Assembly (NCBI GenBank): GCA_023257815.1
Contig: JALRBJ010000006.1
Location: 1 to 40,067, forward strand
DNA: 40,067 nucleotides
DNA from: Candidatus Saccharimonadia bacterium
GTDB taxonomy: Bacteria > Patescibacteriota > Saccharimonadia > Saccharimonadales > Saccharimonadaceae
Reading direction: 5' to 3'
The translations under genes and the position numbers were made by a program. Positions 13,792 to 38,882 of the stretch are shown here, in pieces. Position 1 is the first letter of the stretch; each line of letters begins with the position of its first letter. The notes beneath the pieces were generated by a model, which did not search any database, was not told the origin of the DNA, and saw only the letters and a list, made by a program, of their open reading frames with translations.

Positions 13792-13799
13792 ATTTTTCT

Positions 13800-14428: not shown

Positions 14429-14476
14429 ATATACTTGATTCTTTGCTCCTACCTCTGTTAGAATAAGTCCTTGTAC

Positions 14477-14564
14477 GGAGAGGTGACCGAGTGGTTTAAG
14501 GTACTTGTCTTGAAAACAAGCGTGGGGCAACTCACCGCGAGTTCGAATCTCGCCCTCTCCGCCA
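14477..14564 (+). tRNA. tRNA-Ser(UGA)
   Basis: Type II tRNA. Acceptor GGAGAGG/CCTCTCC, anticodon arm CTTGT-CTTGAAA-ACAAG with anticodon TGA, variable arm, T loop GTTCGAATC, discriminator G, CCA encoded (14562-14564). Confidence 0.95.
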
Positions 14565-21700: not shown

Positions 21701-22087
21701 GGTAAGGTCGATCGAGACCGAGCACTCAATGCTGATATTGATGTCATCGACAAACAAGCTATGGTGCTAGCAGATGCAAGAGTCAGAAACGAACTCATTG
21801 AACCTGAGGCAGCCAAGCAGTACGCTGATACACTTGAGGAGTTCCTTAAAGATCCGCTCACCGGTATGCGCCTCGAAAAACGCAAACGCGGTTCTTACCA
21901 CGTTCTTCTCAAGGAACTACGCGCCGTTGAATCGGGTACACCAATTGATCTATCGCAAATCGAAGATGAATATGTTGATGTTGAATCAGGCGAGATAAGA
22001 AAAATCCTTGATGAAAATAAAATTAGTAGAAAGGCTCAGACAAGTAGTAGCCAGCGGCCACAAGGTCCGATTCGTCTTAAGCCATAA
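18752..22087 (+). CDS. VirB6/TrbL-like polytopic membrane protein 1
   Basis: This 1111-residue protein has an N-terminal signal/anchor (LLATFLMACFGYIFL) and an extracellular domain of about 150 residues. The motif CTIDGIGWIVCP lies near residue 152, then six to seven membrane helices (about 200-450) including ARQAIIIVAIAIAPLAFAAY and LPNTEKWFERWR. A charged cytoplasmic tail of about 650 residues follows, mostly helical, ending QRPQGPIRLKP. VirB6 proteins form the inner-membrane channel of T4SSs. The 24.3-kb gene is a clear paralogue with the same motif. Divergent from the pilin operon. The tail matches no family I know and may recruit substrate. Confidence 0.85.
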   Translation: MWDVLVRTPRGRNNPRKLSMLLATFLMACFGYIFLASTPVNALDGTWKKDDIVYDGNTYTPVPATTKLPVDVPSEATSYQFKDTSKTPNLVHIIYFSEGVNDPKSAKEATYIRYTLNPPNELVKPTDEKKITLVPSNPTTPDKGDGALTHGCTIDGIGWIVCPLMNGISEGMDFIYEKIRGFLEVQPISTSVDNPIYRIWMYSRDLANIAFIIGFLVIIYSYLVGGGFSGYEIRKIIPRLVVAAVLINISYIICSVAVDISNIAGYGVNGLFETVRDQTLSGSDGGNSVNWKDITGWVLAGGTGATVGALALPAVVGGAAGGLWFMLAPFLLGGALLVMVTFLILAARQAIIIVAIAIAPLAFAAYILPNTEKWFERWRGLFFTMLVMFPAFGAVFGGAQLAGDLIIRTAAANGRAEQIILGLGVMVAPLAITPLLLKLGGGILNRIGGIVNNRQKGIYDRYKNYNKERLADHVAKNNKRNAEMLANGGFKKRQFMRRRAAYDYAKKNYRENQRKFDEEAAQNSWHRQTGRWGYDNHGERGEQRSRITKLSKDGYGNLDTYKRDNQLAHNQTEAHHEEHWQQLLQSDATRRGILTDTRLSEGRSKVVAGAMEAQDERTLQTALDSDARYAALRKMKVQTVVDKGVADNAAKAIDADGSAALAETILNDNRLKQQVIRTYEQQGRATQANELVEDAAKANWEKLTLTDRTLYSRQFERQSNAKELKALQNEWESILVEAGAGRTDDYQAKFGPMTQQVATSVQRIQSADEAIAVEAFRKARAEYVDKVNLNQALKQNPELLRRAAGIDEEGNTKVLAELQKEASGLYMQNVEAAKSVFTNDKAYTNARLKQVYRDGVLADGSTATLTQRHAALQRLLMETGNNYAVQDIIDFSNELGVVEDREQAGVFRDMYGNVLTDEEVDSRRDTQQIINDAYAKSKNKVDWHSGTDRGNAESGRHVVRDRNGRIRTDFAGSEVSITSEINKGKVDRDRALNADIDVIDKQAMVLADARVRNELIEPEAAKQYADTLEEFLKDPLTGMRLEKRKRGSYHVLLKELRAVESGTPIDLSQIEDEYVDVESGEIRKILDENKISRKAQTSSSQRPQGPIRLKP

Positions 22088-23027: not shown

Positions 23028-26000
23028 ATGAGACGGGCTGCACGACGATCTACGCTTTTACTTTTGGCTGTATTGATTGCCCTATCTACACTACTGAGCA
23101 CTCTTCTGGTATCAAGCAACGCAAATGCCGCCCCCGCTACGATTGAGGATCCGTCCGTTGGTCTTGAGAAAGTCATCAAGCGTTGGTTTTTTTACAGAGG
23201 TATGTGGGGATGTCTTAAAGGCAGCCTGTATCAAAATAATTACTCAAGACAAGATATAATTTCCGGACACTGGGATCCAGAATGGGACAAAAAAGGCTTT
23301 GGTTACTTTGCCACCGATATGGATGGGGGCGATGGCAATGATGGAACGGTTCAGTGTGATGATGGAAGTGTATTTGCACAAGGAGCGGCTGCCTATGATT
23401 ACCCCAAGGCATCAAGCGACGACACTTACGGCGCTTTATCTTTTTGGTGTTCGTTAATAGATACATACAATAATGACACAAAATCAAAGGTAGTGATTGA
23501 AGGCTCAAGCGACTGTAGCAAAGCCACCAAGTTCGACACAGTAGGGACATATGTCGATAGTGGAGACCTTACGGCCACACTGAGTAAAACAGGTAAGCGA
23601 CCTAGCCAACAGCTATCAGACAACCCTAACTGGCAAGCCATGTACTACCTTATTGGCAAACGATCCCTAGAAAACAAGGCCTTTTGTGGAGACGGCGGCA
23701 CACTTACCAGCCATATAAAAGAAAACATCGGTAATGCTGCAGGCGATAAATACGTTGGCGTTAAAATTGTTGACTCAGCTACCGGTAAAATTTTGTACGA
23801 TAACAAAGAAGTTACCTATGAAATTCAAACCGATAGAAAAGACAGCGATAACATTAATGATAGTTTTTATAAGAGTGGCAATAACGGCGATCAGGCCGAT
23901 GATTACGACTGTAGTGATTTTTCTAAGTTCACTAGAGATCAAGCAGGTAACTACTCAAAATATGTAATCAACTACTATAACGATGCCGTTGGTCAGATAT
24001 TTATAGATAACTTTAAGGCGCTTGATGCCGCAGGCAAAGATGCGATTTGCGGCCCGAAGCCAGATGGCTATAGCTCAACATCACGCGACCCAACACATCT
24101 TGCCTATAATAACTGTTTAAACGGCGGCGAACTTATACCCGCAGTTGGAGTGTGTAAAAGAAGTGCAGAGCTTCAAAAAGGCTTGACTGTAAATGACCGT
24201 ACAAATATCATGAAGACTTGCCTAAAAAAGAGTCTGCCCGCAAAATATACTGATTTTGTCGACGCGTTAGCAACACCCAACGTTAAAGCCGACGACAGTG
24301 CGAGCGTATCAGGCGATGACTCAACAGAAACAACCTCCTGCGCCATAGACGGCATTGGTTGGATTATATGTCCAGTCATGAACTTCATGGCGAAGTTAAA
24401 CGATCAGGCATTCGGATTCTTAGAGAAACTTCTTGCCATAAAGCCAGCTTTGATTGGCCATCAGTCAACCATGGATGCGTGGGGAACATTTCGTGATCTA
24501 GCAAACGTTGCCTTTGTTATTGGATTCCTTGTTATTGTATATTCCCAGCTCACAAGCGTAGGTATAAGCAACTACGGTGTTAAGAAGCTGCTGCCCAAAA
24601 TAATAATTGCAGCGATAATGGTTAACATATCATACTTTGTATGTGCACTGCTGGTAGACGTAAGCAATATTGTAGGCAGCAGCGTATATGGACTGCTTTC
24701 AAATCTTGTATCAGTTCCTGGAGGAGGTGACAGTAGTAGCACATGGGAAAATATTATAGGTGGAATCTTGGTAGGAGGAGTCGGCATATTGCTATTCATA
24801 GTGGTGATAGTCTCGCCAATGGTACTACTGGCTCTTGGTGTTGTATTACTCATACTTATTGGACGGCAAGCCTTTGTGATACTACTACTTGTAGTCTCGC
24901 CACTTGCGTTCGTTGCGTACCTATTGCCAAATACTGAGATTTTGTTTAAGAAATGGCGGAAGGCATTTTCGGCGACGCTTATGGTGTACCCGATTGTCGG
25001 AGCAATATTTGGGGCAAGTACACTCGCTTCAAATATCCTTATGAGCGTTGCAAGTAGCGGTGAGAGTGAAGACGACCAGCAACTACTTTCGATCGTAGCA
25101 CTAGCCACACTGGCAATACCGCTGTTCGCAGTACCAGCAATACTACGAGGTTCAATGGCTGCAGCAGGCCAGCTTGGTAGCAGACTTCAGAATTTAGCCG
25201 ATAAAACACAAGGTAAAGCAAACGCAGGTGCCAAAGATAGATTCGGAGGGATGGCAAAAAATCTAGGCAACAGGGCAAGTACTAGAATGCTCAACGCTGA
25301 CGAACAAAATGGAAGAATAAGGCGTGGAATACTAAAAAGTGGGCGATTCGCAACCGGTATTGGTAGACGTACCAAGCGTGAAGATGCCTACAAGCAAAAT
25401 CAGGCTCTACGTGATGCCGCACAGGAAAACTTCCTTAATGATGGTATCTCTGCTGCTACTAATGCGCAGGGTCAAGTAAATACCGCAAACTTATCGAAGA
25501 CCGCTCGCCGCAGAGTAGACGCTGGAGCCGCAACAGCAACAGCAAAGGCAACCAATCAGCTAATAAATAATAGCGGTGTACAAAGCTCAATAGCAGGAAA
25601 CAGTGGACTCTACCAAAAAGTTGCAGCTAGTGATTTAGCAACTCATCACGATCAGGAATATCAAAAAAATCAGGGTGAAAAGGCATTTTTCGACGGCATA
25701 AAAGATAACCCCGCGCAACAAGCCCACTACAACGAGTTAATAAAATCGCGTGAGGACAGAAAAACCGCAGAAGTAGATGTTGATACAGCGGCTAAAGGTG
25801 ACGCTGGCGTTGTTGCCGCAACTGTAAAGCGTAAACAATCAGAAGAGAGCGGTAAGATAGCCGATATAAAGATTGATGAGGCGTACGAAGACCATGAAGA
25901 CACACAAGAGTTAGTTATAAAAAGAGACGCTGCTGAAAAAAGAACCGAGACCGCAGCCGCAAAGAACAAGAAAGCGGCAATCATACAAAACGAAGGAGTC

Positions 26001-27341
26001 CGTGTTAATGCCGCGGCGGCCGCGGCGGACGTAGCAGCTGTTGAGGCTAGAGAAAAGGCTGTTATCGATGAGCTGAAGACTGATGCGGGGGCCGCGGCTA
26101 GTCCACAGTATGCTGCTGCTGCGGCCACACTCAAAGCAGCAGACACTGCTACAAGACTCTCGACAAATCAAGCAACAAGAGCAGCCAAACAAGCAGAGCA
26201 AGCTTTTATTGAAAGTACCGAGGGTCGTAGCTCCGACCTAACCACTAAGGTTGCCGAAGATCAACTGGCAGCCTCAAAGGCAGCAGAAGAAGCGATTGCA
26301 TCAGAATTACGTGCTGGTGGACGCGATGCCGATGGTAACCTAATCAGTGTTGATGGTCTTGCTCCACAAGAAGTAGAAGCCTTGGCAACTGATCTAAGTC
26401 AAGCTGATGTTGATAGTCGGGTTCAAGCTCAAAGATCAGGTGCCGCAAAACGTGTCACAGATGTAAAATATGCAGGAGCTGTCAAAGCAAGCATTAACGA
26501 AGATGGGGAAGCTGTCGCCGGTGGGCTAGCTGAAGTTGCGGGCGGTATAGAAGGCAAGGCCGGCGTGAGTCAGGCTGCCGCTGTCGCACAACAAACCATT
26601 ATAGAGTCATTTAGAAAAGGTGTTGCAGCCGAAAGCACGCTTCTGTCTAGTACTAGTGAATCCGATATACTTTCACCCACAATGCTTGGAAGTCCAGATA
26701 TTCTTGACCAACCTGATGAAAAGATATCCGCTATGGGTTCAGTGATTGCAAAACGCCAGCACATGACGTCGCATATTAAATTGTGGAGACGAATGGGTGA
26801 ACTACAGAACGAGCTTGATGGTCAGCAAAATGACATAAATAAACTTCCAGAAAACAGCGCACAAAGAGTCCAGCAGCAAGCAGAGCTTGATGCCAAGAGA
26901 AGTAAGCTCGTTAACTTGCAACAACAAGTTATGGGCGATAAGTCAAAGAAACCATTCGGAATCGGTGATGCAGACCAAGGCGCAGCAACCGTTGGTAAAT
27001 ATGGCACCAATATTTACGAAGAGACTCGTAAGCGCATACTCACGCACCTTACAGATGGTTCACTATCGTCTATGGATCCTGATGATATGAAGCTCCTATA
27101 CGAAATGGGGCGCGACGGAAAACTTGGACCCGAACATGTTGCCAAAATCCAAGAATCATTTGAAGCATGGGAGAAAAATCCAAATCTCAAACATCTACTC
27201 AAAGATAAGAGCCGTGCCCTACTGGAACCTGTCATCTATCAAGATTACAGCGCCGATCCGGAATCTACCAAACCTGTTGCGGATAGGAAAGTTGAATTTT
27301 CCGGCGTCCACTCCATGACTGATCCAGCATCAGGTTCTTAG
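23028..27341 (+). CDS. VirB6/TrbL-like polytopic membrane protein 2
   Basis: This 1437-residue protein has a signal peptide (LLLLAVLIALSTLLSTLLVS, cleavage near NANA) and an extracellular region of about 400 residues, Cys-rich with aromatic Gly segments. CAIDGIGWIICPVMN lies near residue 438, then membrane helices (about 485-735) including GRQAFVILLLVVSPLAFVAY and LPNTEILFKKWRKAF. A cytoplasmic tail of about 700 residues is very Ala-rich and coiled-coil prone (for example AAAAADVAAVEAREKAV). It is paralogous to the 18.7-kb gene across the membrane core. The large extracellular domain could contact a partner cell. Leaderless promoter; 25 bp before the PrgI gene. Confidence 0.85.
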   Translation: MRRAARRSTLLLLAVLIALSTLLSTLLVSSNANAAPATIEDPSVGLEKVIKRWFFYRGMWGCLKGSLYQNNYSRQDIISGHWDPEWDKKGFGYFATDMDGGDGNDGTVQCDDGSVFAQGAAAYDYPKASSDDTYGALSFWCSLIDTYNNDTKSKVVIEGSSDCSKATKFDTVGTYVDSGDLTATLSKTGKRPSQQLSDNPNWQAMYYLIGKRSLENKAFCGDGGTLTSHIKENIGNAAGDKYVGVKIVDSATGKILYDNKEVTYEIQTDRKDSDNINDSFYKSGNNGDQADDYDCSDFSKFTRDQAGNYSKYVINYYNDAVGQIFIDNFKALDAAGKDAICGPKPDGYSSTSRDPTHLAYNNCLNGGELIPAVGVCKRSAELQKGLTVNDRTNIMKTCLKKSLPAKYTDFVDALATPNVKADDSASVSGDDSTETTSCAIDGIGWIICPVMNFMAKLNDQAFGFLEKLLAIKPALIGHQSTMDAWGTFRDLANVAFVIGFLVIVYSQLTSVGISNYGVKKLLPKIIIAAIMVNISYFVCALLVDVSNIVGSSVYGLLSNLVSVPGGGDSSSTWENIIGGILVGGVGILLFIVVIVSPMVLLALGVVLLILIGRQAFVILLLVVSPLAFVAYLLPNTEILFKKWRKAFSATLMVYPIVGAIFGASTLASNILMSVASSGESEDDQQLLSIVALATLAIPLFAVPAILRGSMAAAGQLGSRLQNLADKTQGKANAGAKDRFGGMAKNLGNRASTRMLNADEQNGRIRRGILKSGRFATGIGRRTKREDAYKQNQALRDAAQENFLNDGISAATNAQGQVNTANLSKTARRRVDAGAATATAKATNQLINNSGVQSSIAGNSGLYQKVAASDLATHHDQEYQKNQGEKAFFDGIKDNPAQQAHYNELIKSREDRKTAEVDVDTAAKGDAGVVAATVKRKQSEESGKIADIKIDEAYEDHEDTQELVIKRDAAEKRTETAAAKNKKAAIIQNEGVRVNAAAAAADVAAVEAREKAVIDELKTDAGAAASPQYAAAAATLKAADTATRLSTNQATRAAKQAEQAFIESTEGRSSDLTTKVAEDQLAASKAAEEAIASELRAGGRDADGNLISVDGLAPQEVEALATDLSQADVDSRVQAQRSGAAKRVTDVKYAGAVKASINEDGEAVAGGLAEVAGGIEGKAGVSQAAAVAQQTIIESFRKGVAAESTLLSSTSESDILSPTMLGSPDILDQPDEKISAMGSVIAKRQHMTSHIKLWRRMGELQNELDGQQNDINKLPENSAQRVQQQAELDAKRSKLVNLQQQVMGDKSKKPFGIGDADQGAATVGKYGTNIYEETRKRILTHLTDGSLSSMDPDDMKLLYEMGRDGKLGPEHVAKIQESFEAWEKNPNLKHLLKDKSRALLEPVIYQDYSADPESTKPVADRKVEFSGVHSMTDPASGS

Positions 27342-27366: not shown

Positions 27367-28383
27367 ATGGCAGTCTACAAAGTACCCCAAGACGTTGAAG
27401 CTGACGATAAGCTAATCGGGCCGTTTTCGTTCCGACAGTTTATTTATTTGATTATCGTTGCAGGGTCGGGCTTTATTGGCTGGATGCTTGCACAATTATT
27501 TATACCTTTAGCCATAATTGTGCTGCCAGTCATCGTATTCTTTGGTGCACTGGCATTACCACTGCGTAAAGATCAGCCAATGGAAACCTATATGGCAGCG
27601 ATTGTTTCGTATTATTTAAAACCCCACAAACGCCTATGGAGCCCAGATGGTACCCAGAGTTTAGTTGAAATTACTGCCCCGAAAGTTATTGAAGTACAGC
27701 GAACTAAAGATCTGTCACAAGATGAAGCCGAGCGACGCCTAAGTTACCTAGCTAGCATTGTAGATTCACGCGGTTGGGCTGTGCGAGGTGTACAAGAACA
27801 AATGCCTAGCGCTCCCAGTTCAATGAATAGTGACGCCTATTACGAAGCTCAGACCGCCCCCGATATTCTGGACGATACAGCCGGAATAGGGCAGGTGCTT
27901 GAAACAAGGCTTGATCAGGCTGATGCTAAACGTCATCAGGATATGATTAACCAATTTCGCACTCAAGCCAGTAGCGCTACAAGCGCGCCCGTGGTCGCCG
28001 CAAATACAACACCCCTTCCTGTACAGATGCAAGCAGCGTCACCAACCCAAGAGCCGGCTGCTCAACCTATGGCCCAGCCCCAACAAGCACAAGAAGACAC
28101 TTCCACACAAGCTGTAACATTCAATCCATACCCCACGATGCATCAATCGGTCATTAGCCCAATTGATCCCTCTAGTGCCACAACAAGCACCGCACAGCCA
28201 GATCCAGCAAGTCAACCTCTAATAGTCGAACCCGAAAAGCCTAGCGAAAAGCAGGTGTCGCCTGATATAATTAACCTTGCAAATAATCCCGATTTATCGG
28301 TGGAGACGATTGCCAGGGAGGCTAATCGCATTCACGAAAAAGAGAAACTATCCGAAGATGAGGTAGTTATATCTCTTCGTTAA
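27367..28383 (+). CDS. PrgI family (VirB3-like) membrane protein
   Basis: This 338-residue protein has an N-terminal 100 residues that match the PrgI layout: YKVPQDVEADDKLIGPFSFRQ, two close membrane helices (FIYLIIVAGSGFIGWMLAQLF and LAIIVLPVIVFFGALALPL), then YMAAIVSYYLKPHKRLW. PrgI is the gram-positive counterpart of VirB3 and anchors the VirB4 ATPase. The remaining region is a cytoplasmic Pro/Gln/Ala-rich linker (about 190-290) and a short helical end (NNPDLSVETIAREANRIHEKEKL). The long tail is unlike the short PrgI of conjugative plasmids. It precedes the TraC-like and VirB4 genes. Confidence 0.88.
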   Translation: MAVYKVPQDVEADDKLIGPFSFRQFIYLIIVAGSGFIGWMLAQLFIPLAIIVLPVIVFFGALALPLRKDQPMETYMAAIVSYYLKPHKRLWSPDGTQSLVEITAPKVIEVQRTKDLSQDEAERRLSYLASIVDSRGWAVRGVQEQMPSAPSSMNSDAYYEAQTAPDILDDTAGIGQVLETRLDQADAKRHQDMINQFRTQASSATSAPVVAANTTPLPVQMQAASPTQEPAAQPMAQPQQAQEDTSTQAVTFNPYPTMHQSVISPIDPSSATTSTAQPDPASQPLIVEPEKPSEKQVSPDIINLANNPDLSVETIAREANRIHEKEKLSEDEVVISLR

Positions 28384-28423: not shown

Positions 28424-29368
28424 ATGCCGCCAAACCAACCGAATAACCAACCTCAAGTGCAGCCAATCATGCCACAGAATGGTTCTGTTAGTACTGCACA
28501 AAATTTAGCCACTCCCGCTCAGCAAGCTCCTCAGATGCCTGCTGCACCACAACCCACACTAGGAACTCCTCCGGTAGCTCCGCAAGTAATGCCAGGCCAA
28601 CCACAGCCGGTGGGTAATGCGCCCGCTACGCAACCTACAAAAAAGGCCACCAATCCGAACACTACACAAAATACTTTATTGATTTCTGAAGTTCGCGAAA
28701 ATATGGTCATAATGCGTGACGGTAGCTTTAGAGCAGTTGTGGCCTGTAAGTCGATTAATTTCGACCTTATGAGTAGTCGTGAACGTGAGGGTGTTGAATA
28801 TAGTTACCAAAACTTTCTTAACTCATTGTATTTTCCGGTGCAAATATTCATTCGCTCGCAGCGGGTTGATATTGGCCCCTACATTGACCGCCTAGTAAAC
28901 ATTCGTCGCAATCAAGATAACATGTTACTTGGCGTTTTGATGGAAGATTACATAAACTTCATAGATATACTTAGCCAAGAGGCCAACATTATGGATAAAA
29001 GTTTCTTTATTGTGGTGCCATACTTCCCATCGGGTGATCTTGGCGACTTAAAAGGGCAGGCAAAAGGCTTCTTTGGCAAAATATTTGCTAAGCAGTCGAA
29101 CGATGTTGTTAAGATTGATGAAGCAAGTTATAACAAAGCCCGTGATGAGATTAAAAACCGCGTTGATTCGGTTATGAGCGGTTTGTTCCAAATTGGGGTA
29201 AAGAGCGTGCAGCTGAACACTAAGGAATTGGGTGAGCTGTACTACAACATCTATAATCCCGATACGGCCGTTCGTGAACCACTTGGCGATTTTGATAGCG
29301 TTACCAGCACTTATGTTATGAAGGGTCAGGGCGACGCACCAAAAGTAAATCTGCAAGGGGGCGTGTAG
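28424..29368 (+). CDS. TraC-like domain protein (VirB4 partner)
   Basis: This 314-residue protein has about 85 residues of Pro/Gln/Asn-rich linker. A folded domain follows: TLLISEVRENMVIMRDGSFRAVVACKSINFDL, then FLNSLYFPVQIFIRSQRVD, then SFFIVVPYFPSGD. This resembles the N-terminal domain of TraC/VirB4 ATPases, here as a separate gene. It probably forms part of the ATPase complex at the membrane. Its stop overlaps the GTG of the VirB4 gene by one base (TAGTG), which supports a joint complex. The start ATG has no visible ribosome binding site. Confidence 0.78.
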   Translation: MPPNQPNNQPQVQPIMPQNGSVSTAQNLATPAQQAPQMPAAPQPTLGTPPVAPQVMPGQPQPVGNAPATQPTKKATNPNTTQNTLLISEVRENMVIMRDGSFRAVVACKSINFDLMSSREREGVEYSYQNFLNSLYFPVQIFIRSQRVDIGPYIDRLVNIRRNQDNMLLGVLMEDYINFIDILSQEANIMDKSFFIVVPYFPSGDLGDLKGQAKGFFGKIFAKQSNDVVKIDEASYNKARDEIKNRVDSVMSGLFQIGVKSVQLNTKELGELYYNIYNPDTAVREPLGDFDSVTSTYVMKGQGDAPKVNLQGGV

Positions 29369-31272
29369 TGGCGAAAAAACTCGATCCCGTAGATATTGCC
29401 GCCCAACAGCGTGCCCGCGAACAAGCCGAGGTAGAACAGGCGTTCTTAAAAGGTGTTACGACACTCCGTGACCTAATTGCACCGAGCAGCATTGAAATTC
29501 ATTCCAGCCACTTTAGACTTGGCACAAAATATGGTCGAACGCTTTATGTATATGGCTATCCACGCCAGATTTATACCGGCTGGCTATCAAGCATCATCAA
29601 CATCGACGAGGTTCTTGATATATCAATGTTTATTTATCCAGTTGAAAGCCAGGTAGTGCTTAATAACCTGCGCAAAAAAGTTACCCAAATGGAAGCAAGT
29701 ATTGCCATTAACAGCGAAAAAGGACGTACACGCGACCCTGGACTTGAAGCAGCTATTCAGGATGCCGAGGAGCTGCGTGATCAACTACAGGTTGGAGCTG
29801 AGCGTTTTTTCCGCTACGGGCTGTACTTAACACTTTATGCAGATAGCTTAGATGAGCTTGGATTCGTGCAACATAAAATCGAAACCATTTTTGGTCAGCA
29901 GCTAGTATTTAGCAAGGTTGCAAGTAGCCAGCAAGAGCAGGGGATGAACAGTACGATTCCCCAAATGATGGATCAGTTGCAGATTAGGCGCAACATGAAC
30001 ACTGGAGCTATTTCTACCAGTTTCCCATTCACAAGTGCCGACCTTACTGACAGCAAGGGAATCCTGTACGGAATTAACATGCACAACAATGGGCTGGTTA
30101 TATTTGATCGGTTTAGCCTGGAAAATGCCAATATGGTAGTATTTGCGAAATCTGGTGCAGGAAAGTCATTCACTGTAAAGCTAGAGGCTATTCGCAGCAT
30201 GATGACCGGATCTGATATAGTTATCATCGACCCCGAAAATGAATACCAAAAACTATCCGACGCAGTGGGTGGCAGCTACATCCGGCTTAGCCTAAGTTCT
30301 GATACTCGCATAAACCCATTTGACTTACCTAAAGTAATCGACACCGAAGAGGCGGACGACGCATTACGGGCAAACCTGGTAACCTTACATGGATTGTTCA
30401 GGCTCATGCTTGGCGGCAGTCAAACAACTGCCAACGGGCAGATCCTTGCTGGACTCACTCCCGCAGAGGAGGCCGACCTAGACCAAGGGCTTATTGATAC
30501 TTATGCTCGCGCCGGTATTACCTCCGACCCGCTAACGCATCACTCAACCCCTCCAACCATTGCAGACTTATACGACACATTACTGCATATGGGTGGTACT
30601 GGACCACAACTAGCTCAACGATTACGCAAGTACACCAGCGGAACATTCGCTGGCATATTTAGCCAGCAGTCAAACATCGACATTAACAACAATATGGTGG
30701 TGTTTAATATTCGTGATCTTGAAGATGAACTCCGACCAGTTGCGATGTACATTGTACTAAGCCACATTTGGAACATTACCCGTACCGATCAACGCAAACG
30801 AATGCTAATCGTTGACGAAGCTTGGCAGCTTATGAAATACGATGATTCTGCCAATTTCCTATTTAGCCTTGCTAAGCGGGCTCGTAAGTATCAGCTTGGA
30901 CTTACCACGATTACTCAAGACGTGGAAGATTTTATGGGTAGCAAGATGGGGCGAGCAATTGTAGCCAACAGCTCCATGCAGCTGCTACTCAAGCAGTCAT
31001 CGAGTGCCGTTGACGTGCTTGCCGATGTATTCAAACTTACAGAAGAAGAGCGCAAGCGACTAGCAAACTTCCCAGTCGGGCAGGGGCTATTCTTTGCTGG
31101 TCAAAACCACGTACATATTCAGATTGTTTCAAGCGAAACCGAACAGCAGCTTGTTACGACAGGAAGGGGTGCTTCTGGAACGCCAGCACAGGCCGCGCCA
31201 TCCGCTCAGACTCAGCCAACAGAACCAAGCGTCAGCCCAGGTTATATGAACCCTGGTGAATCCGGTATATAA
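29368..31272 (+). CDS. VirB4-like ATPase
   Basis: This 634-residue cytoplasmic motor assembles and powers a T4SS. Residues 40-220 form the VirB4 N-terminal domain (GRTLYVYGYPRQIYTGWLSS). Walker A is KSGAGKSFT (about 255-264), Walker B is MLIVDEAW (about 480-487), followed by LAKRARKYQLGLTTITQDVEDF, a hallmark of VirB4/TraC. The C-terminal tail is Ala/Pro/Gln-rich and ends NPGESGI. The start is GTG with AAGGGGG upstream, overlapping the TraC-like gene. All catalytic motifs are intact, so the machine is probably active. Confidence 0.93.
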   Translation: MAKKLDPVDIAAQQRAREQAEVEQAFLKGVTTLRDLIAPSSIEIHSSHFRLGTKYGRTLYVYGYPRQIYTGWLSSIINIDEVLDISMFIYPVESQVVLNNLRKKVTQMEASIAINSEKGRTRDPGLEAAIQDAEELRDQLQVGAERFFRYGLYLTLYADSLDELGFVQHKIETIFGQQLVFSKVASSQQEQGMNSTIPQMMDQLQIRRNMNTGAISTSFPFTSADLTDSKGILYGINMHNNGLVIFDRFSLENANMVVFAKSGAGKSFTVKLEAIRSMMTGSDIVIIDPENEYQKLSDAVGGSYIRLSLSSDTRINPFDLPKVIDTEEADDALRANLVTLHGLFRLMLGGSQTTANGQILAGLTPAEEADLDQGLIDTYARAGITSDPLTHHSTPPTIADLYDTLLHMGGTGPQLAQRLRKYTSGTFAGIFSQQSNIDINNNMVVFNIRDLEDELRPVAMYIVLSHIWNITRTDQRKRMLIVDEAWQLMKYDDSANFLFSLAKRARKYQLGLTTITQDVEDFMGSKMGRAIVANSSMQLLLKQSSSAVDVLADVFKLTEEERKRLANFPVGQGLFFAGQNHVHIQIVSSETEQQLVTTGRGASGTPAQAAPSAQTQPTEPSVSPGYMNPGESGI

Positions 31273-31295: not shown

Positions 31296-34200
31296 ATGCC
31301 GAAACTTGACGACTACAACGACCCTGATGAAATATACAACCCTGCTAATAAACTCGCCAAAAAGGAGCAGGCAGCAGGAGGTGAAGATTTTAGGGAGCCA
31401 GGCGGAACTTCAAACTCATCACAAAACTCAAGAACAAGCTCAACACAGAATGTACAAAATCGTGAAAATGGATTCTATGAACCCGATGATAACGAACCAG
31501 ACCGAGGCGCCAGCAAAACCGTCAGCTTAAGGACAATATACAGAAAACGCGGAGCAACCGCAGCGCTCATTACCCTGATGCTCGGCCTACCTACGATTAT
31601 AGCTATTTTTCTATCGCCAGCGCTCGTGATTCAGCAATTTACCGAAGCACTGACGGGTGAATTTAACGACCAGCTTGGTGCTTTAGATGTTCGCTCAACG
31701 CTTCTTCTGAAGAAAAAATACAATTCCGTCTTTACAAAAAATGTGTGTGGAACAGTCGTATCTATAGGCTGTAAATACAAGACAATCCGTTTAAAATCAG
31801 GGCTTGCTAAGCGTCTAGAAAATGCAGGCGTCACAATTAAGGGTGACGAGAGTCTTATACCTGGTCGGGTAAAGCCAACTCACTTTGTGTTTGAAGGCAA
31901 GGAGATTCCCGCCAAAGATTTACTAAAGGAGGCGAGGAACAATGTATCACTCCAAAAAGCTTTGCGCAAAGGCTACGACCCCCTATATGCGGCTTTTTCG
32001 GATAGAAAAGCGGCAGATATACGCACACGACTTGGCTTAAAAAGAAGTAGCGACGTTAAGGCCTCGACCGATGAAAAACAGATGAATGAAGATCTTAAGG
32101 AGACAGCCGCCGGCGAGAATAACATTCCAGAGAGCGGCGAGAAGCTTACTGCACAAAAAGATGAAAACGGCAACGTAACCGGTTACGTGGACGCCGATGG
32201 TACTGTTATAGATAAACTTGAGGGTGAACGAATTAATAGCCTTATTGATGAATCCATTGGTCAGGGCAAATTAGCCGAGAAAGTTGGAAAAGCAGCCACA
32301 AAAGGTTCGCTCAAGAGCGTATTAACATCCACGGCCTTTGGTGCCGGTGCAATCGATAGCGCATGTACGGCATGGACACTCATTCGTGTTGCAGGGTATG
32401 CGGCAAAGATATACCAAAAACGACAGTTGGCACGATACTACTACGAGTTTGCAAAGTTTGCTCATAAACAACGGTATGGGGATTCCACGGCAGAAGAAAC
32501 CGAATTCTTCGCGAACAAACTGACCAGCGTGAATAGTGAGGGCAAGAACGCACTCGATTCAGACGGCTATAGGTTTGCTGCCTACGGCGACAGTTTTAAC
32601 CCGGGTAATTTTGACGCAGAAACGGCTAACCTGAAAAAGGGTGAGGTTACAGATGAAGATATTAACAGAATAATGGTTCAAAACGAAACCAGCCGCTACA
32701 TAAATGGTCAGCTTATAAGCACCAGCTTGATGGCGAAGATCGCAACAGCCATAACAGCTGGTAACTCTAGTGCAGTAGACGCAGCCGATAAGACTTGTGG
32801 GTTTGTAAAAAGCTGGAAAGGCCAAGCGTTAGTATTCGGACTTGCAGCAGCCGGTGCCGTAGTAGCCTTCTTTACCGGTAGCGCATCGGTCAGCGTAGGA
32901 GCGATCGCTCAAGGCGCCGTGAGCGTGGCAGTGTCTGTTGTATTTGCACTGCTTCAACCAAAGCTTATTGATATGGCTAAAGGGGAGGTAATTAAAGGCG
33001 ACGAGAATGGTAACGAAACCGGTAACGGAGGTACTTCTGGGGCGGGTGGTTACAATGGCGAAATGAGTCAAGGTACGGGCATGGGCGTTGCAACTCAAAA
33101 AACATACCAAGACTACAATAAACTCTCAACAGAAGTTGCCGCCAAGTACGCAGAAATCGACAGAAGTGAAAGAAGCCCGCTTGACCCAACAAGTAAGAAT
33201 ACGTTCCTAGGTAGCATCGTAGCGACCATTTTGCCATACACCACAAAGATGCAAACAGTTGGCTCAACCAGCCTAGCTCTTTCGTCATTCGTAACGGCCA
33301 GTATTTCATCGCTTGGCATGGTAAAAACCGCCAAAGCAGATAGCGATGATAAATACAATCAATGCGACGATCCTGAATACAAAAGCAGAGACTTAGCAGC
33401 CGACCCGTTCTGTAATCTACGATACGCCATTCCCGTAGAAGACCTAAATATCGACCCAGACAAGGTATTAGACTACATGATCACGGGGGGTTACATATCG
33501 GAAGAAGATGAAACACCGCAGGGTGATTACGCGGACTACGTAGCAAAGTGTTTTGACAGAAAAACATCAATTGGTGACAGTGTTACCGATTACACCGATG
33601 GTGAAGGCGAGAGTGGTGGTGACGCTGGTGACGAGTGCATTATTGGCAAAGGCGGCAGCAGTGAAGAACGAAACAAAATGTTCCGACTCTTCTATATCGA
33701 CACTCGTATAAGTGATGGTATGGAAGAAGATTTCGATACAGCAGCGCCCGAAGTAGTCGGCGGAATTGATCTGAATATTGCATCATTCAATGTTCGCGGT
33801 GCAAGCCACGACGGCGAGAATGGCACTATATCCTACCAAACCCGCATGAAGAAAACAGTCGAAACAGTTCAAAAGGAAAACTTCGACGTTATCGGATTCC
33901 AAGAATTCGAAACCAAGCAACGTACAGAATTTAATGCTGCCCTAAGTAGTACATACACCTTATCGAGCAATGATGGCGGTAGCGATAACGGCAACGGTAT
34001 TGCTTGGAATTCAGCAAAGTATGACTTAGTCAGTAAGGGCACCCAACCAAGCCTTAAATACTTTAATAACGGCAAATTAAAAGCTCCTTGGGTAAAGCTT
34101 AAAGATAAATCAACCAACCAGATGTTCTATTTCCTTAATACACACGATCCGGCCAATGTGGGTGGTGACTATTCTGCCGAACGAACCGCGAATGCCGTAC

Positions 34201-36002
34201 AACACGTAGCCTTCATGAAGGAGAAGGCAGCCGAAGGTATACCTGTATTCATATCGGGTGACTTTAACTCCTCATTCAAGAAAAGAACATCCCCAGGAGG
34301 TGGTGATACTAACGTAACAGCTAATAATATTAAAGAAACACTGCCGTACTGCGTTATGACTTCAGGAGATACTATTAAGAATGCTTTCGACGTGTATAAG
34401 AATCGAGATGCCAGATGTCCAAACGAAGATATCAACTGGGATAAAGAAGATCCGGGCAAGGGTTGCTCAACTCAAATTGATCACTTGTATATACTTACGG
34501 GCAGTCAAGCGGCTACTGTTAACGGATTTGGATGTGTCCGCAAAGGTGATAAAGCAGGCACAGTTGACGCAGGAAACGGTTCAGATCATGACACCGTAAA
34601 GTTTAGTGTGTCAATCGCCGGCGTAAACCAAAGTAGCGGGGCAGGCAGTAGTTTCGTTATAGGTTCCTATAACCAAAAAAGAGCTCTGCCCGCATCCAGT
34701 CACACAGCTGCAGTTAACAATATAGTCAATAGTAATATGGACGTGGTTGGAACTCAGGAAACTTCAGATCCAAAATTCACCAGGTATAGAGATCAATTAA
34801 AAAATGCCGGCTACGGATCGTATCCTTTGGCAGCAGGACCAAACCAGACCTGCAGCAATGCCCAGGCAATATTCTTTAAGTTATCAAAATTTAGTCTACT
34901 AAAGGGCGAGTACTTTGAAATACCACGCTACCCTGATCCAGCAGTTAACTGTGGTAATGGAGAAAAAACAGTAGCCAGCCATAAAGATGCAGTAGCGGAC
35001 GGGTATCCAGCAACTTGGACACATATTCCGGTAGTCTGGTTGCAAGATGTGGCAACCAAGCAGACGGTGATAGTCATTAATACTCATAACGTGGCAAATG
35101 TGAAGGGTGCTGCAGGCACGAATCCCGCAAAGAGTCGTTGGAGATCGGCGCAAATATATATTGAACAGATACAACGCCTGAAGTCACAAAACCCAGGAAC
35201 GCCAATATTCATGACTGGTGACTTCAATGAGGGAACAGATGTACGAAATGACGGCAATACGACATACCAAGGCAAGCAAGAAAATCTATTCTTTTGCATG
35301 GTTGCAAACACAGGCCTACTAAAGAGTGTTGATGGTCCAGTTATGAAATGTGATCCAAAATATAGTGTAGGTGGAGTTGATTATATATATGCATCACCAG
35401 AAGTAACCGTTGATTGGACAAAAACTATCGCTAGCGGAGGAGGAGATAGTGGTCCACCATCCTACACAGACCACCCTGTGCTTTACGCAAAGGTAACCGT
35501 TCCAGGTAGTGGCGCAGCCAGTCCGACTACTTCGCTACCGTCAAAAGATGGATGGGTATGGCCAGTGCCAGATGTTAAGTCAATGGGAACTCTTCCCTAT
35601 GGAGCAAAGGGCTCAAAGGGAATTCACAAGGGAATAGATATCGGTATATCTGGTGGTGCAGCACTTGGCAAAACAGTGGTTGCCGCGCACGATGGCACCG
35701 TAAACAGAGTATGGGGCAAAGACAGCGCCTGCGGTACCTACATATCGATAGCAGCGTCTGACACAAAATACTACGCCGCCTACCAGCACGTAGCTGGAGA
35801 CAGCGTGCTTGTAAAAGCTGGAGACAAGGTTAAGGCTGGTCAACCAATTGCAAAAATTGGTCGGCAAGGAGGGTCAAGCTGCGGATCGGCTGGATTCTTC
35901 CACCTTCACTTCAGCATTGAAACTCGTCCTGGTACGGTGAGTGAATATGCAGACAAATTCCCCAACGGAACTATAGATCCTCTAAAGGTGTTGCCAAAAT
36001 GA
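31296..36002 (+). CDS. Giant secreted fusion: two EEP nuclease-like domains plus M23 peptidase
   Basis: This 1568-residue protein has an Asn/Gln-rich cytoplasmic start, then a membrane helix (about 92-115, LITLMLGLPTIIAIFLSPAL) and a long helical region with further hydrophobic stretches near 520-560 and 660-685. EEP domain 1 spans about 824-1106: SFNVRG, FQEFE, LNTHDP, SGDFNSS, QIDHLY, GSDHD. EEP domain 2 spans about 1119-1401: SYNQKR, TQETS, INTHN, TGDFNEG, VDYIYA, YTDHP. The M23 metallopeptidase spans about 1417-1568: HKGIDIG, YQHV, HLHFSI. All catalytic residues look present. It probably cuts peptidoglycan and nucleic acid or phospholipid outside the cell. The ATGA overlap couples it to the lysozyme gene. 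Confidence 0.85.
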   Translation: MPKLDDYNDPDEIYNPANKLAKKEQAAGGEDFREPGGTSNSSQNSRTSSTQNVQNRENGFYEPDDNEPDRGASKTVSLRTIYRKRGATAALITLMLGLPTIIAIFLSPALVIQQFTEALTGEFNDQLGALDVRSTLLLKKKYNSVFTKNVCGTVVSIGCKYKTIRLKSGLAKRLENAGVTIKGDESLIPGRVKPTHFVFEGKEIPAKDLLKEARNNVSLQKALRKGYDPLYAAFSDRKAADIRTRLGLKRSSDVKASTDEKQMNEDLKETAAGENNIPESGEKLTAQKDENGNVTGYVDADGTVIDKLEGERINSLIDESIGQGKLAEKVGKAATKGSLKSVLTSTAFGAGAIDSACTAWTLIRVAGYAAKIYQKRQLARYYYEFAKFAHKQRYGDSTAEETEFFANKLTSVNSEGKNALDSDGYRFAAYGDSFNPGNFDAETANLKKGEVTDEDINRIMVQNETSRYINGQLISTSLMAKIATAITAGNSSAVDAADKTCGFVKSWKGQALVFGLAAAGAVVAFFTGSASVSVGAIAQGAVSVAVSVVFALLQPKLIDMAKGEVIKGDENGNETGNGGTSGAGGYNGEMSQGTGMGVATQKTYQDYNKLSTEVAAKYAEIDRSERSPLDPTSKNTFLGSIVATILPYTTKMQTVGSTSLALSSFVTASISSLGMVKTAKADSDDKYNQCDDPEYKSRDLAADPFCNLRYAIPVEDLNIDPDKVLDYMITGGYISEEDETPQGDYADYVAKCFDRKTSIGDSVTDYTDGEGESGGDAGDECIIGKGGSSEERNKMFRLFYIDTRISDGMEEDFDTAAPEVVGGIDLNIASFNVRGASHDGENGTISYQTRMKKTVETVQKENFDVIGFQEFETKQRTEFNAALSSTYTLSSNDGGSDNGNGIAWNSAKYDLVSKGTQPSLKYFNNGKLKAPWVKLKDKSTNQMFYFLNTHDPANVGGDYSAERTANAVQHVAFMKEKAAEGIPVFISGDFNSSFKKRTSPGGGDTNVTANNIKETLPYCVMTSGDTIKNAFDVYKNRDARCPNEDINWDKEDPGKGCSTQIDHLYILTGSQAATVNGFGCVRKGDKAGTVDAGNGSDHDTVKFSVSIAGVNQSSGAGSSFVIGSYNQKRALPASSHTAAVNNIVNSNMDVVGTQETSDPKFTRYRDQLKNAGYGSYPLAAGPNQTCSNAQAIFFKLSKFSLLKGEYFEIPRYPDPAVNCGNGEKTVASHKDAVADGYPATWTHIPVVWLQDVATKQTVIVINTHNVANVKGAAGTNPAKSRWRSAQIYIEQIQRLKSQNPGTPIFMTGDFNEGTDVRNDGNTTYQGKQENLFFCMVANTGLLKSVDGPVMKCDPKYSVGGVDYIYASPEVTVDWTKTIASGGGDSGPPSYTDHPVLYAKVTVPGSGAASPTTSLPSKDGWVWPVPDVKSMGTLPYGAKGSKGIHKGIDIGISGGAALGKTVVAAHDGTVNRVWGKDSACGTYISIAASDTKYYAAYQHVAGDSVLVKAGDKVKAGQPIAKIGRQGGSSCGSAGFFHLHFSIETRPGTVSEYADKFPNGTIDPLKVLPK

Positions 36003-37384
36003 TACTCAAATACCTACACAAGGCTAGGTTTGCGTTGCTCATATTACTCTCGTGCATAGTAGCCCTTGAACCAATTAACGTTTTAGCAAAAAACGATGGC
36101 AAGTTATCTGATGAGCAAAGTCGTATTGGTAATAAAATCTTTTACTATAACCCTAATGATACCTGTAATGGCGGTTCAACCACTCCAACTATTACTCCAG
36201 TGGCAAACTCAGGTGGTGGCGATCCTGAGCCAATTTTACAGTTTTTTGTTGGCAAGGGACTTACACTTGCTGCAGCCGCTGGTTTTGCCGGCAATATGCA
36301 AGTTGAATCGGGTATGAATCCGAAGAATGTAGAAAACGCGTCTCAAGATGGAGAACTAAACAAAAAAGTAAATGGTGGAGGTGACGCTAAACCTGCCGCA
36401 GAAAATGGTGGAAAAATGTATACTCCAATTGATGGTGTTGGATTTGGTCTGGTTCAGTGGACATTTGGAGGATATAAAGCCGGACGTGAAGATCCATCTA
36501 AATTCACGTCACGACAGGGTGGCCTGTATCATTTTGCAAAAGAGCAAAATAAAGATATCACCGATATTAATTTGCAGCTTGAATATGTATGGAAAGAGTT
36601 AACTACAGGATACAAAAAAAGTACTCTCGATAAACTTTCAAACATAGCCAACCCCGTCGAAGCAGCAATCATCGTACACGATAACTATGAAATATCAGCC
36701 GATAGCGATTCAAAAGTACGCAGTGTTCGCGGCGGCAACGCAAAAACATATTATGATAATTTTAAAGATAAAATATCCGATGGTGCAGGCGCTGTCACAC
36801 CAACCGTTCAGCCTAACCCTGTAAGCGGAGGTGGTGCGTGTGGAGATAAAACTGCAGATACTAATGCGAGCGGTGGAGTAGGTGAGGCCGGTGGCCTGAC
36901 CTTTCCTTTAAAGACAACCAAGGCGATAATTAAAAAGGGCAGTGATGGCATGGTATGGTGCTTTGAGAGTCAAAGCAATTGCCACCACGACTACAATGCG
37001 GCAGATATTTTTGCACCCACAGGTACGCCGATCATTGCCGCAAAGCCAGGCAAAGTAGTAAGCAAGACAACCGGTTCATGTGAGTACTCTGGCTGTAACG
37101 TATCAGTAAAAGGCGACGACGGATTACTTTACTACTACACTCACATGAGTAAGCAGGCAATAGTGAATGTTGGTAAAAAAGTTACCGCAGGTGAGCAACT
37201 TGGCTCAGTTGGAACCAACGCAACCGCAATGAATACACCCCGTCACCTTCATTTCGATATTACAAGAGGTTCTTTTAGGCCATCTTGTTCTGGGTCAAGC
37301 TGTAATGATAGTGATTTTATAAACGTACAACCTGTATTAATACCAGCTTTTAACGCGTTGCCAGAAGGAGCCACCAGTGTATAA
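35999..37384 (+). CDS. Secreted wall hydrolase: phage-tail lysozyme plus M23 peptidase
   Basis: This 461-residue protein has a signal peptide (KARFALLILLSCIVALEPINVLA). Residues 75-250 resemble the phage tail-tip lysozyme domain (PILQFFVGKGLTLAAAAGFA, GNMQVESGMNPKNVEN, GFGLVQWTFGGYKAG), with E as the likely catalytic acid. Residues 300-450 are an M23 endopeptidase: HHDYNAADIFAPTGTPIIAA, YYTHMSK, RHLHFDI. It takes the VirB1 role of opening the wall for the secretion channel, and may also act on a partner cell. The start overlaps the previous stop (ATGA) and the end overlaps the next gene by 8 bp. Confidence 0.88.
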   Translation: MILKYLHKARFALLILLSCIVALEPINVLAKNDGKLSDEQSRIGNKIFYYNPNDTCNGGSTTPTITPVANSGGGDPEPILQFFVGKGLTLAAAAGFAGNMQVESGMNPKNVENASQDGELNKKVNGGGDAKPAAENGGKMYTPIDGVGFGLVQWTFGGYKAGREDPSKFTSRQGGLYHFAKEQNKDITDINLQLEYVWKELTTGYKKSTLDKLSNIANPVEAAIIVHDNYEISADSDSKVRSVRGGNAKTYYDNFKDKISDGAGAVTPTVQPNPVSGGGACGDKTADTNASGGVGEAGGLTFPLKTTKAIIKKGSDGMVWCFESQSNCHHDYNAADIFAPTGTPIIAAKPGKVVSKTTGSCEYSGCNVSVKGDDGLLYYYTHMSKQAIVNVGKKVTAGEQLGSVGTNATAMNTPRHLHFDITRGSFRPSCSGSSCNDSDFINVQPVLIPAFNALPEGATSV

Positions 37385-38882
37385 CGATAACCAACGATTA
37401 AGTATAAACCGGCGCACTGTGGTTGTAATTGGTTGCATATTAATTGCTGCAATTGTATTTATTTTTGTTGCACTACACGGTTTTTTGAACATTAAAGGGT
37501 TTAATAACAAATCTTTTACGTACAGTAGTCTTACGGATGATTTAGTAACCTCGTCTACCAACAAAGCAAGTGGTTCGTTTAATTTATTAGCGTCAGGAAA
37601 ACATACGGTTCAATTAACAAAAGATGACACTGGCATTGAGACACACTACGTAAATATCCCTTATTTCTTTGGAACGAGCACTATTAAAAGAAATAATAGC
37701 AGTTCAAAAATACAGGTAGTTGGAAGGGGTGTACAAGCACAACTTGCTATGACACCAACTGGGCTTATAGGCTGGAATAGTGCCGGTCTTATTCAACAAA
37801 TCAACCAATCAAGTATAGATAATTCAGACTCACCATCAAGCACTAATGTTTTCTTCCCTAATTTTGATGCTACATATCAAGTAAACTCTCATTATATTGG
37901 GGGAGTTGTAAAAGCCGATGATCAATATATCCCTATGTACTACGATACAATTACTGGTGATAATTTTTCTTACGATGCAATCCAAGCAAACAATTTATCT
38001 TCAAAGCAAGAGTCAACGGGATTTAGTGTATATAGCAATAAAAAAATTCAGCTTTACACACCAAATAATTCTAAGCCGAAGATCGTTACTACTAACGAAA
38101 CAATTTCAAACTACAACAATAATCCGCTCTATTCACTTACCTCAAAGACTTCTGTGATCGTTACCGGGGGCAACTTGTCTTCAATAAACGAGAATGAAGA
38201 TGTAAAGACTCCTGAAGCAAACTTAAAGCTATCAGTTATAGATAATACATTAGGAAAGACTGTTCGTACTAAACAGTTTGGAAGTACACAAGTCCAAGAT
38301 ATACTTCTTTCGCCAGATGGTAAGTTGATATTTATAAAAACGAATCAGTCAATGGCCATATACACTACAGGTTCTTTCGAAATTGTGTACATGGCACCAT
38401 TCACAATCAGTCAATTTATGTGGATAGATTCTGATAAATTTACTTTTGCCACTACAGACAAGGGTCTATTTATAGGCACGGCATCAAAGAAAGAAGCCTC
38501 CACGATTGTGTCTTATTCACTCGTAAGACCCACTCAATTATCGTTTATAGATAATGATTGGATTTACTTTACGGGTTATCCGGGCGATGATGAGGGTAGT
38601 CAAAACTCTGATGCATATCGAGCCTCAACAAAGGATACTCAAACAGGGTTTGATAATAAGGTGTTAGAAAAGTTTCCATATCAGGGCGATGGATATTACG
38701 TAGACTATATAAATAATAGGTTTATTGTTCAGCTTACAAAATACATCTCTTCATCTGGCGAAAATGTTAGTGAGGAAGACAAACAGAAAGCAAACGACTA
38801 TATATTTAACACAGTAGGTAGTTCAGTACCATCAACTGACATCATCTACACATACGTAGTAACCGACCTTCGTAGTTTTTAA
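37377..38882 (+). CDS. Membrane-anchored beta-rich protein, end of the T4SS-like operon
   Basis: This 501-residue protein is not recognised as a family. The start is GTG 37377 with AGAAGGAG 6 bp upstream, overlapping the preceding gene by 8 bp, so it is co-translated. An N-terminal helix (TVVVIGCILIAAIVFIFVALHGFL, about 14-37) is followed by an exported domain with repeated beta strands such as VQDILLSPDGKLIFIKTNQS and FEIVYMAPFTISQFMWIDSD, suggesting a beta-propeller. It is rich in Asn/Ser/Thr, with AT-rich codon use. Its operon position points to a role in the secretion machine, perhaps as a surface scaffold. It converges with dnaN after 3 bp. Confidence 0.75.
   Translation: MYNDNQRLSINRRTVVVIGCILIAAIVFIFVALHGFLNIKGFNNKSFTYSSLTDDLVTSSTNKASGSFNLLASGKHTVQLTKDDTGIETHYVNIPYFFGTSTIKRNNSSSKIQVVGRGVQAQLAMTPTGLIGWNSAGLIQQINQSSIDNSDSPSSTNVFFPNFDATYQVNSHYIGGVVKADDQYIPMYYDTITGDNFSYDAIQANNLSSKQESTGFSVYSNKKIQLYTPNNSKPKIVTTNETISNYNNNPLYSLTSKTSVIVTGGNLSSINENEDVKTPEANLKLSVIDNTLGKTVRTKQFGSTQVQDILLSPDGKLIFIKTNQSMAIYTTGSFEIVYMAPFTISQFMWIDSDKFTFATTDKGLFIGTASKKEASTIVSYSLVRPTQLSFIDNDWIYFTGYPGDDEGSQNSDAYRASTKDTQTGFDNKVLEKFPYQGDGYYVDYINNRFIVQLTKYISSSGENVSEEDKQKANDYIFNTVGSSVPSTDIIYTYVVTDLRSF

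What the first reader, a model, noticed from the sequence alone, without database searches (positions are those of the whole stretch)
31296..36002. Two EEP hydrolase domains fused to an M23 peptidase on one membrane-anchored protein
One 1568-residue protein appears to carry two complete DNase I-like catalytic sites and a wall endopeptidase, inside a T4SS-like operon in the position of VirB1. I know of no characterised secretion system with this head. It could cut the wall and extracellular DNA of a partner cell to feed nucleotides to a nucleotide-auxotrophic epibiont, or it could be a phosphodiesterase toxin.
Basis: partly seen in the sequence, partly recalled or inferred. Interest (0 to 1): 0.8.

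Follow-up and report, generated by a model that had tools for sequence, protein, structure and literature searches.

The report
Phosphodiesterase-armed wall-cutter beside epibiont T4SS
A tiny parasitic bacterium (Saccharibacteria) carries, next to its type IV secretion motor, a membrane-anchored wall-cutting protein with two extra DNase I-fold phosphodiesterase domains; relatives swap these for other envelope enzymes, so they more likely help cut through a bacterial wall than digest DNA.

Summary
ORF 31296-36002 (1568 aa) has a membrane-anchored stem, two EEP domains with complete catalytic sets, and an intact M23 site. AlphaFold models of both EEPs are confident and match EEP structures. The gene directly follows a split VirB4 in a Saccharibacteria MPF_FATA-type T4SS operon.

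The interpretation needs changing. Across the family the stem protein is standard and usually ends in one peptidoglycan hydrolase (M23, VanY, CHAP, NlpC). EEPs are patchy cargo: one to three in the stem protein, sometimes in the next gene's lysozyme protein, where other lineages have GH43, GH3 or GDPD domains instead. Almost every recognised head domain is an envelope hydrolase; no nuclease family other than EEP appears. The nearest solved structure with a named function is a mannosyl-6-phosphatase, not DNase I, CdtB or sphingomyelinase. Plasmids of Nocardioidaceae and Paenarthrobacter encode two-EEP proteins with M23 or SLT-CHAP in their T4SS clusters; a DNase would be odd there. VirB4 is 82-92% identical across these genomes while head modules are 22-68% or unalignable.

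Best reading: an exchangeable wall-penetration head whose EEPs cut phosphoesters of wall glycopolymers. EEP substrate is unproven. Novelty: new variant of VirB1-like wall hydrolases.

The parts
31296..36002 (+). 1568-aa stem-EEP-EEP-M23 protein (P0001)
31575..31631 (+). N-terminal transmembrane segment, residues 94-112; residues 1-93 predicted cytoplasmic
   Evidence: hydropathy; position conserved in relatives
31632..33725 (+). conserved stem to residue 810, with 8 cysteines invariant in 37 relatives and a hydrophobic hairpin at residues 511-552 (32826-32951)
   Evidence: no PDB relative
33771..34622 (+). EEP domain 1 (residues 826-1109), catalytic set intact
34644..35510 (+). EEP domain 2 (residues 1117-1405), catalytic set intact
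35619..35918 (+). M23 (LytM-type) peptidase domain, residues 1442-1541, HxxxD and HxH present
35999..37384 (+). next gene, ATGA overlap: N-terminal segment, Phage_lysozyme2 (36227-36763), M23 (36986-37267); the second wall hydrolase of the cluster
29368..31272 (+). VirB4 ATPase, C-terminal part (CD1110 family, above its curated cut-off)
28424..29368 (+). VirB4 N-terminal part, separate gene
   Evidence: same split in relatives
27367..28383 (+). PrgI / VirB3-like protein
23028..27341 (+). 1437-aa protein with a weak match to the MMCAP2_0566 conjugal transfer family; conserved upstream of PrgI
18752..22087 (+). 1111-aa protein with a sub-threshold TrbL/VirB6 match
37377..38882 (+). 501-aa protein downstream, no family match

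Best explanation
The protein is the VirB1-like wall-penetration subunit of the Saccharibacteria T4SS. Shown from sequence: it is encoded directly after VirB4, carries a predicted membrane anchor, and has two intact EEP sites and an intact M23 site. Inferred: N-terminus inside, cysteine-rich stem and head outside, because 8 stem cysteines are invariant on both sides of the hairpin. Inferred: the M23 domain cuts peptidoglycan cross-links. Inferred: the EEP domains hydrolyse phosphoester bonds of wall glycopolymers (for example teichoic-acid-type chains or their phosphodiester link to MurNAc) that would block the peptidase, in the host wall and possibly in the epibiont's own. The head is exchanged by recombination to match different walls, while the motor stays constant.
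For: Domains, catalytic residues and folds. Slot logic: 80 stem heads give M23 41, VanY 12, EEP 11, CHAP 2, NlpC 1; 69 downstream proteins give Phage_lysozyme2 54, C39 9, CHAP 9, GDSL 8, M23 5, Amidase_3 5, SLT_2 4, Glucosaminidase 3, EEP 3, GH43 1, GH3 1, GDPD 1. In the downstream protein EEP, GH43, GH3 and GDPD occupy the same place between the N-terminal segment and the lysozyme/CHAP part. Nearest solved structures to the EEP profile are 3g6s, 3mpr and 4c1r mannosyl-6-phosphatase; at E <= 1e-5 no DNase I, CdtB, SMase or ExoIII is reached. Actinobacterial plasmids carry EEP proteins with M23 or SLT-CHAP in T4SS clusters upstream of the coupling protein. Mosaic evolution: VirB4C 82-92%, stem 22-62%, EEP2 63% to a genome whose stem is only 26%. 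Analogy: GDPD accompanies endopeptidases in enterococcal phage tail modules (PMC10194240). Actinomyces oris has LCP phosphotransferases and a TagF homologue (PMC6381275). S. epibionticum's peptidase and lysozyme genes after virB4 are reported essential (PMC12102498).
Against: No EEP enzyme with shown activity on wall glycopolymers was found in the library searched. 4c1r is named a phosphatase (monoester), and its name is taken from the PDB title only. TDP2, CCR4 and nocturnin, which act on nucleic acids or nucleotides, are the next structural neighbours. Slot and plasmid arguments are guilt by association. The host of this genome is unknown. A VirB1 protein may act only on the donor's own wall.
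Confidence: 0.52

Rival explanations
1. The EEP domains are surface nucleases that cut extracellular or host-released DNA or RNA, clearing the biofilm matrix or supplying nucleotides to an auxotroph.
For: The fold and catalytic set allow it; TDP2, CCR4 and nocturnin are structural neighbours. Saccharibacteria generally lack nucleotide synthesis (PMC10633639).
Against: No other nuclease family occurs in 149 head proteins, while envelope hydrolases fill the slots. DNase I, ExoIII and CdtB are remote in profile search. Same arrangement in DNA-transferring plasmids. EEP domains are near neutral in net charge. ComEC is dispensable in S. epibionticum (PMC10633639), which weakens the need for DNA as food.
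Confidence: 0.25
2. The EEP domains attack host membrane phospholipids or phosphoinositides (phospholipase C or inositol-phosphatase type), opening the host membrane after the wall is cut.
For: EEP includes sphingomyelinases and inositol phosphatases; one sphingomyelin phosphodiesterase is reached by the wider profile at 4e-10. A hydrophobic hairpin is conserved in the stem.
Against: Sphingomyelinases are much more distant than 3g6s/4c1r. The GH43/GH3/GDPD substitutions point to the wall. The hairpin is also present in EEP-less relatives.
Confidence: 0.1
3. The protein only remodels the epibiont's own wall for T4SS assembly, as for canonical VirB1; the EEPs trim its own glycopolymers and the host is not touched.
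For: This is the accepted role of VirB1 in Gram-positive conjugation (PMC12857230). Plasmid donors and recipients often share a wall type.
Against: Head modules differ strongly between relatives whose VirB4 is 86-92% identical, which fits adaptation to varying partners better than to a shared own wall. Not decisive.
Confidence: 0.1

Closest known systems
Gram-positive VirB1-like T4SS wall hydrolases (PrgK of pCF10, TraG of pIP501, Orf14 of Tn916)
   Same: Membrane-anchored, one or more extracellular wall-hydrolase domains, encoded in the T4SS cluster; PrgK also has a LytM/M23 domain (PMC12857230).
   Different: A ~700-residue cysteine-rich stem with a hydrophobic hairpin, two EEP phosphoesterase domains, no SLT or CHAP domain on this protein (lysozyme is on the next gene).
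Saccharibacteria/Patescibacteria T4SS (S. epibionticum SEML1_0006-0019)
   Same: MPF_FATA-type, PrgI and VirB4, peptidase and lysozyme genes immediately downstream of virB4, near the replication origin genes, no relaxase (PMC10633639, PMC12102498).
   Different: No nuclease or EEP domain is mentioned for it in the text of PMC12102498; exchangeability of the head was not described in the passages read.
EEP-bearing T4SS hydrolases of actinobacterial plasmids (pA-N39, pCHL, pTC1, pNOCA01)
   Same: Two EEP domains with M23 or SLT-CHAP on one protein in a T4SS cluster; next to a VirB4-like ATPase gene in pCHL and pNOCA01.
   Different: Different, short anchor without the Saccharibacteria stem; a transglycosylase-type domain is usually present as well; annotated only as peptidase, transglycosylase or EEP protein.
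EEP group of 3g6s/3mpr/4c1r (mannosyl-6-phosphatase Bt3783)
   Same: Closest solved structures in sequence profile and fold.
   Different: Stand-alone proteins; about 16-22% identity; glycan phosphatase activity known here only from the PDB title.
Phage tail-associated lysins with GDPD plus endopeptidase
   Same: A phosphodiesterase predicted to act on teichoic acid accompanies a peptidase at the tip of a penetration machine (PMC10194240).
   Different: GDPD is a different fold from EEP; phage tail rather than T4SS.

Membership tests
EEP superfamily | EEP sandwich fold | tested here: met
   AlphaFold and Foldseek for both domains
EEP superfamily | complete catalytic residue set (N, E, H, D-x-N, D, D-H) | tested here: met
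   both domains; invariant or nearly invariant across A4 and A5
DNase I / ExoIII / CdtB nucleases | closest affinity to these subfamilies | tested here: not met
   3g6s/3mpr/4c1r far ahead; DNase I and CdtB only at about 5e-4 with the wider profile
DNase I / ExoIII / CdtB nucleases | nuclease activity | not testable with these tools
   needs an enzyme assay
M23 (LytM) peptidase | HxxxD and HxH zinc motif | tested here: met
   H1444, D1448, H1536, H1538; Pfam above cut-off
Gram-positive VirB1-like T4SS hydrolase | encoded in the T4SS cluster next to VirB4 | tested here: met
Gram-positive VirB1-like T4SS hydrolase | membrane anchor with extracellular enzymatic domains | tested here: met
   by prediction only: hydropathy and invariant cysteines
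Gram-positive VirB1-like T4SS hydrolase | SLT/muramidase and/or CHAP domain on the same protein | tested here: not met
   M23 and EEP only; lysozyme is on the next gene. So it is said to work like a VirB1, not to be a member by these domains
T4SS-delivered effector or toxin | free, translocated protein with immunity partner | tested here: inconclusive
   anchored protein; the next genes are a wall hydrolase and an unassigned 501-aa protein; an immunity role for the latter was not tested

The most novel reading that the evidence does not exclude
Saccharibacteria T4SSs carry a hypervariable, exchangeable wall-breaching head, a functional analogue of phage tail lysins, whose EEP domains are a previously unrecognised class of wall-glycopolymer phosphodiesterase. 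One EEP lineage is shared with conjugative plasmids of Actinobacteria, the phylum of their known hosts, and the head contributes to which host wall an epibiont can breach.
Probability: 0.38. Interest if true: 0.82.

Novelty: new variant of a known kind. Interest (0 to 1): 0.64.

Why it matters
How Saccharibacteria breach and feed on their hosts is unknown, although their T4SS is reported essential. This points to a concrete, testable piece: next to a VirB4 that stays about 90% identical, the outward-facing hydrolase head diverges and is reshuffled module by module. It makes a prediction about enzymatic substrate (wall phosphoesters rather than DNA), links epibiont heads to heads on actinobacterial conjugative plasmids, and offers a place to look for determinants of host range.

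Tried and rejected
Full-length scan of genome contigs with P0001 found nothing; an EEP profile worked. No phage record encodes the EEP used as query at E <= 1e-5. The stem has no PDB relative, so a VirB8- or VirB6-type stem could not be tested; a stem fold was not attempted because few sequences allowed for folding were on hand. A recent tandem duplication of the two EEPs was rejected: EEP1 and EEP2 fall in different clades that both span other genomes. Assembly artefact rejected: same architecture in several assemblies. One label error of mine: L199 is a Saccharibacteria MAG although shown under Nocardioidaceae_chr. The A4 profile includes Bacteroidota rows and so favours 3g6s/4c1r; the Saccharibacteria-only profile A3 is the fair test. 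Literature searches for EEP in T4SS or Saccharibacteria found no report, in an open-access library only, so absence of prior description is not shown.

Full report
CHECK OF THE OBSERVATION. The ORF at 31296-36002 is real, 1568 aa, with an ATG start, and overlaps the next gene by ATGA. Pfam places two Exo_endo_phos stretches and one Peptidase_M23 on it, above curated cut-offs. Both EEP domains keep the eight catalytic residues (N832, E870, H950, D989, N991, D1062, D1097, H1098 in EEP1; equivalents in EEP2), and M23 keeps H1444, D1448, H1536/H1538. AlphaFold models with 42-43-row alignments reach pLDDT 88.8 and 86.2, and both match EEP structures in Foldseek at probability 1.00. Hydropathy gives one TM at 94-112 and a hydrophobic hairpin at 511-552.

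CONTEXT. The operon reads 1437-aa MMCAP2_0566-like protein, PrgI, VirB4 N-part, VirB4 C-part (CD1110 family), this protein, a Phage_lysozyme2-M23 protein, a 501-aa protein of no family; then dnaN on the other strand. This order is conserved in relatives. Named relatives on contigs of matching length are Candidatus Saccharibacteria MAGs UBA1050, UBA2018, UBA2951, UBA2952 and UBA6572. The operon matches the T4SS described as MPF_FATA-derived, mostly relaxase-less and often near the replication origin (PMC12102498), and essential for epibiotic growth in S. epibionticum (PMC10633639). PMC12102498 states that peptidase and lysozyme homologues immediately downstream of virB4 are essential there.

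THE STEM IS STANDARD, THE EEPS ARE CARGO. With the whole protein as query, 319 of 394 genomes of the family have a match. In most members the stem (~800 aa) is followed directly by a ~160-aa hydrolase domain. Pfam over 80 heads: M23 41, VanY 12, EEP 11, M15_4 4, CHAP 2, NlpC/P60 1, plus a few isolated minor matches. EEPs occur in large T4SS-slot proteins in 11 of 14 genomes of the window's genus (a twelfth, G494, weakly) and patchily in other genera (G312, G414, G417, G418, G439, G466, G405), as one, two or three copies. They also occur in the lysozyme protein of G467, G502, G414, G439 and G405. In that protein other lineages have GH43 (G486), GH3 (G385) or GDPD (G417) at the same place between the N-terminal segment and the lysozyme or CHAP domain. 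Pfam over 69 downstream proteins lists lysozyme, C39, CHAP, GDSL, amidase, SLT, glucosaminidase, M23, NlpC, VanY and endolysin-type domains, with isolated oddities (one beta-lactamase-type, one TrbL), and no nuclease family other than EEP.

MOSAIC DIVERGENCE. Against the window, VirB4C is 82-92% identical in the genomes compared, whereas the stem is 22-62%, EEP1 26-37%, EEP2 25-63%, and M23 from no alignment to 68%. The modules do not agree with each other: G486 is nearest by stem (62%) but its M23 gives no BLAST alignment; G303 has a 26% stem but a 63% EEP2; G417 and G529 have 67-68% M23 with an unalignable or 26% stem. This indicates exchange of modules next to a nearly constant motor. The EEP tree puts window EEP1 and EEP2 in separate clades, each with counterparts in other genomes, so the pair is not a recent tandem duplication. 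A third EEP type (lysozyme slot of G502 and G467, third EEP of G418) groups with EEPs of actinobacterial plasmids (SH-aLRT 100, 8 rows; one of them, from G467, has a long branch).

PLASMID PRECEDENT. tblastn of plasmids found Pimelobacter simplex pA-N39, Nocardioides sp. QY071 pCHL, Nocardioides sp. JS614 pNOCA01 and Paenarthrobacter aurescens pTC1. Their proteins read EEP / transglycosylase-like / EEP / M23 (pA-N39, pCHL; the transglycosylase-like part is my reading of the sequence, Pfam gave only EEP and M23) or EEP-EEP-SLT-CHAP (pTC1, pNOCA01). In pCHL and pNOCA01 the gene directly follows an ATP-binding VirB4-like gene and lies upstream of a TraM-recognition coupling protein. In pTC1 the ATPase and the EEP gene are separated by a segment with an integrase gene; in pA-N39 an integrase and metal-resistance genes lie upstream and no T4SS ATPase is annotated in the 14 kb read, but the coupling protein follows downstream in both. 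pTC1 and pNOCA01 are typed as conjugative with MOBF relaxases. A DNase at the outlet of a DNA-transfer machine would be counter-productive, so a wall role is more economical; this is inference. Some Saccharibacteria genomes also hold a second EEP-M23 locus beside a divergent VirB4-like gene, with segments similar to the plasmid protein.

WHICH EEP BRANCH. A profile of Saccharibacteria EEPs alone hits 3g6s (1.5e-26), 3mpr (2e-22) and 4c1r, named mannosyl-6-phosphatase (8e-22), then CCR4 and nocturnin; no DNase I, CdtB, SMase or ExoIII at 1e-5. Foldseek agrees, with TDP2, CCR4 and nocturnin next. Net charges are near zero. This does not settle the substrate: a glycan phosphoester is favoured, nucleic acid remains possible.

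MECHANISM. Shown by sequence: location, domains, intact sites, exchangeability, divergence. Inferred: outside topology (odd number of TMs; 8 cysteines invariant in 37 stems, on both sides of the hairpin); peptidoglycan cutting by M23; wall-glycopolymer phosphoester cutting by EEP; a role of the head in matching the host wall. Actinomyces oris, of a known host genus, has LCP phosphotransferases and a TagF homologue, i.e. phosphodiester chemistry in its envelope (PMC6381275). Enterococcal phage tail modules pair GDPD with endopeptidases (PMC10194240), a functional precedent for phosphodiesterase plus peptidase at a penetration tip.

VERDICT. Real, conserved as a slot, variable as cargo, and not an isolated curiosity. 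It works like a Gram-positive VirB1, but lacks the usual SLT/CHAP domains on this protein and adds EEPs, so it is filed as a new variant.

Noticed in passing
L100:6279-8510 (-), L106:5161-7536 (-), L098:5689-7629 (+): The T4SS lysozyme-slot protein of relatives carries GH43, GH3 or GDPD domains in the place where others have an EEP.
   Followed up: partly
L089:8061-10322, L091:7503-10664, L093:7791-10247 (all -): A second locus in G303, G312 and G467 encodes an EEP-M23 protein beside a divergent VirB4-like gene, with segments similar to the actinobacterial plasmid protein.
   Followed up: partly
window 32826-32951 and relatives in A6: The stem of the whole family has a conserved hydrophobic hairpin flanked by invariant cysteines; no solved relative. 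It might enter a membrane, own or host.
   Followed up: partly
L155, L165, L169 (G442, G469, G458): One genus has two stem-type genes in the same locus, most with their own hydrolase neighbour.
   Followed up: no
window 28424-31272: VirB4 is split into two adjacent genes, N-terminal part and ATPase part, in all relatives looked at.
   Followed up: partly
L266:7471-10587, L265:12459-15602: The plasmid EEP-M23 genes are under-annotated in the distributed gene table: the listed gene covers only the M23 end on pCHL and a C-terminal part on pA-N39, although the open frame spans two EEP domains as well.
   Followed up: yes
window 12379-14564: Three tRNA genes (Arg-gcg, Ser-gct, Ser-tga) lie within 2.2 kb, with a fourth (Ser-cga) at 5200.
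   Followed up: no
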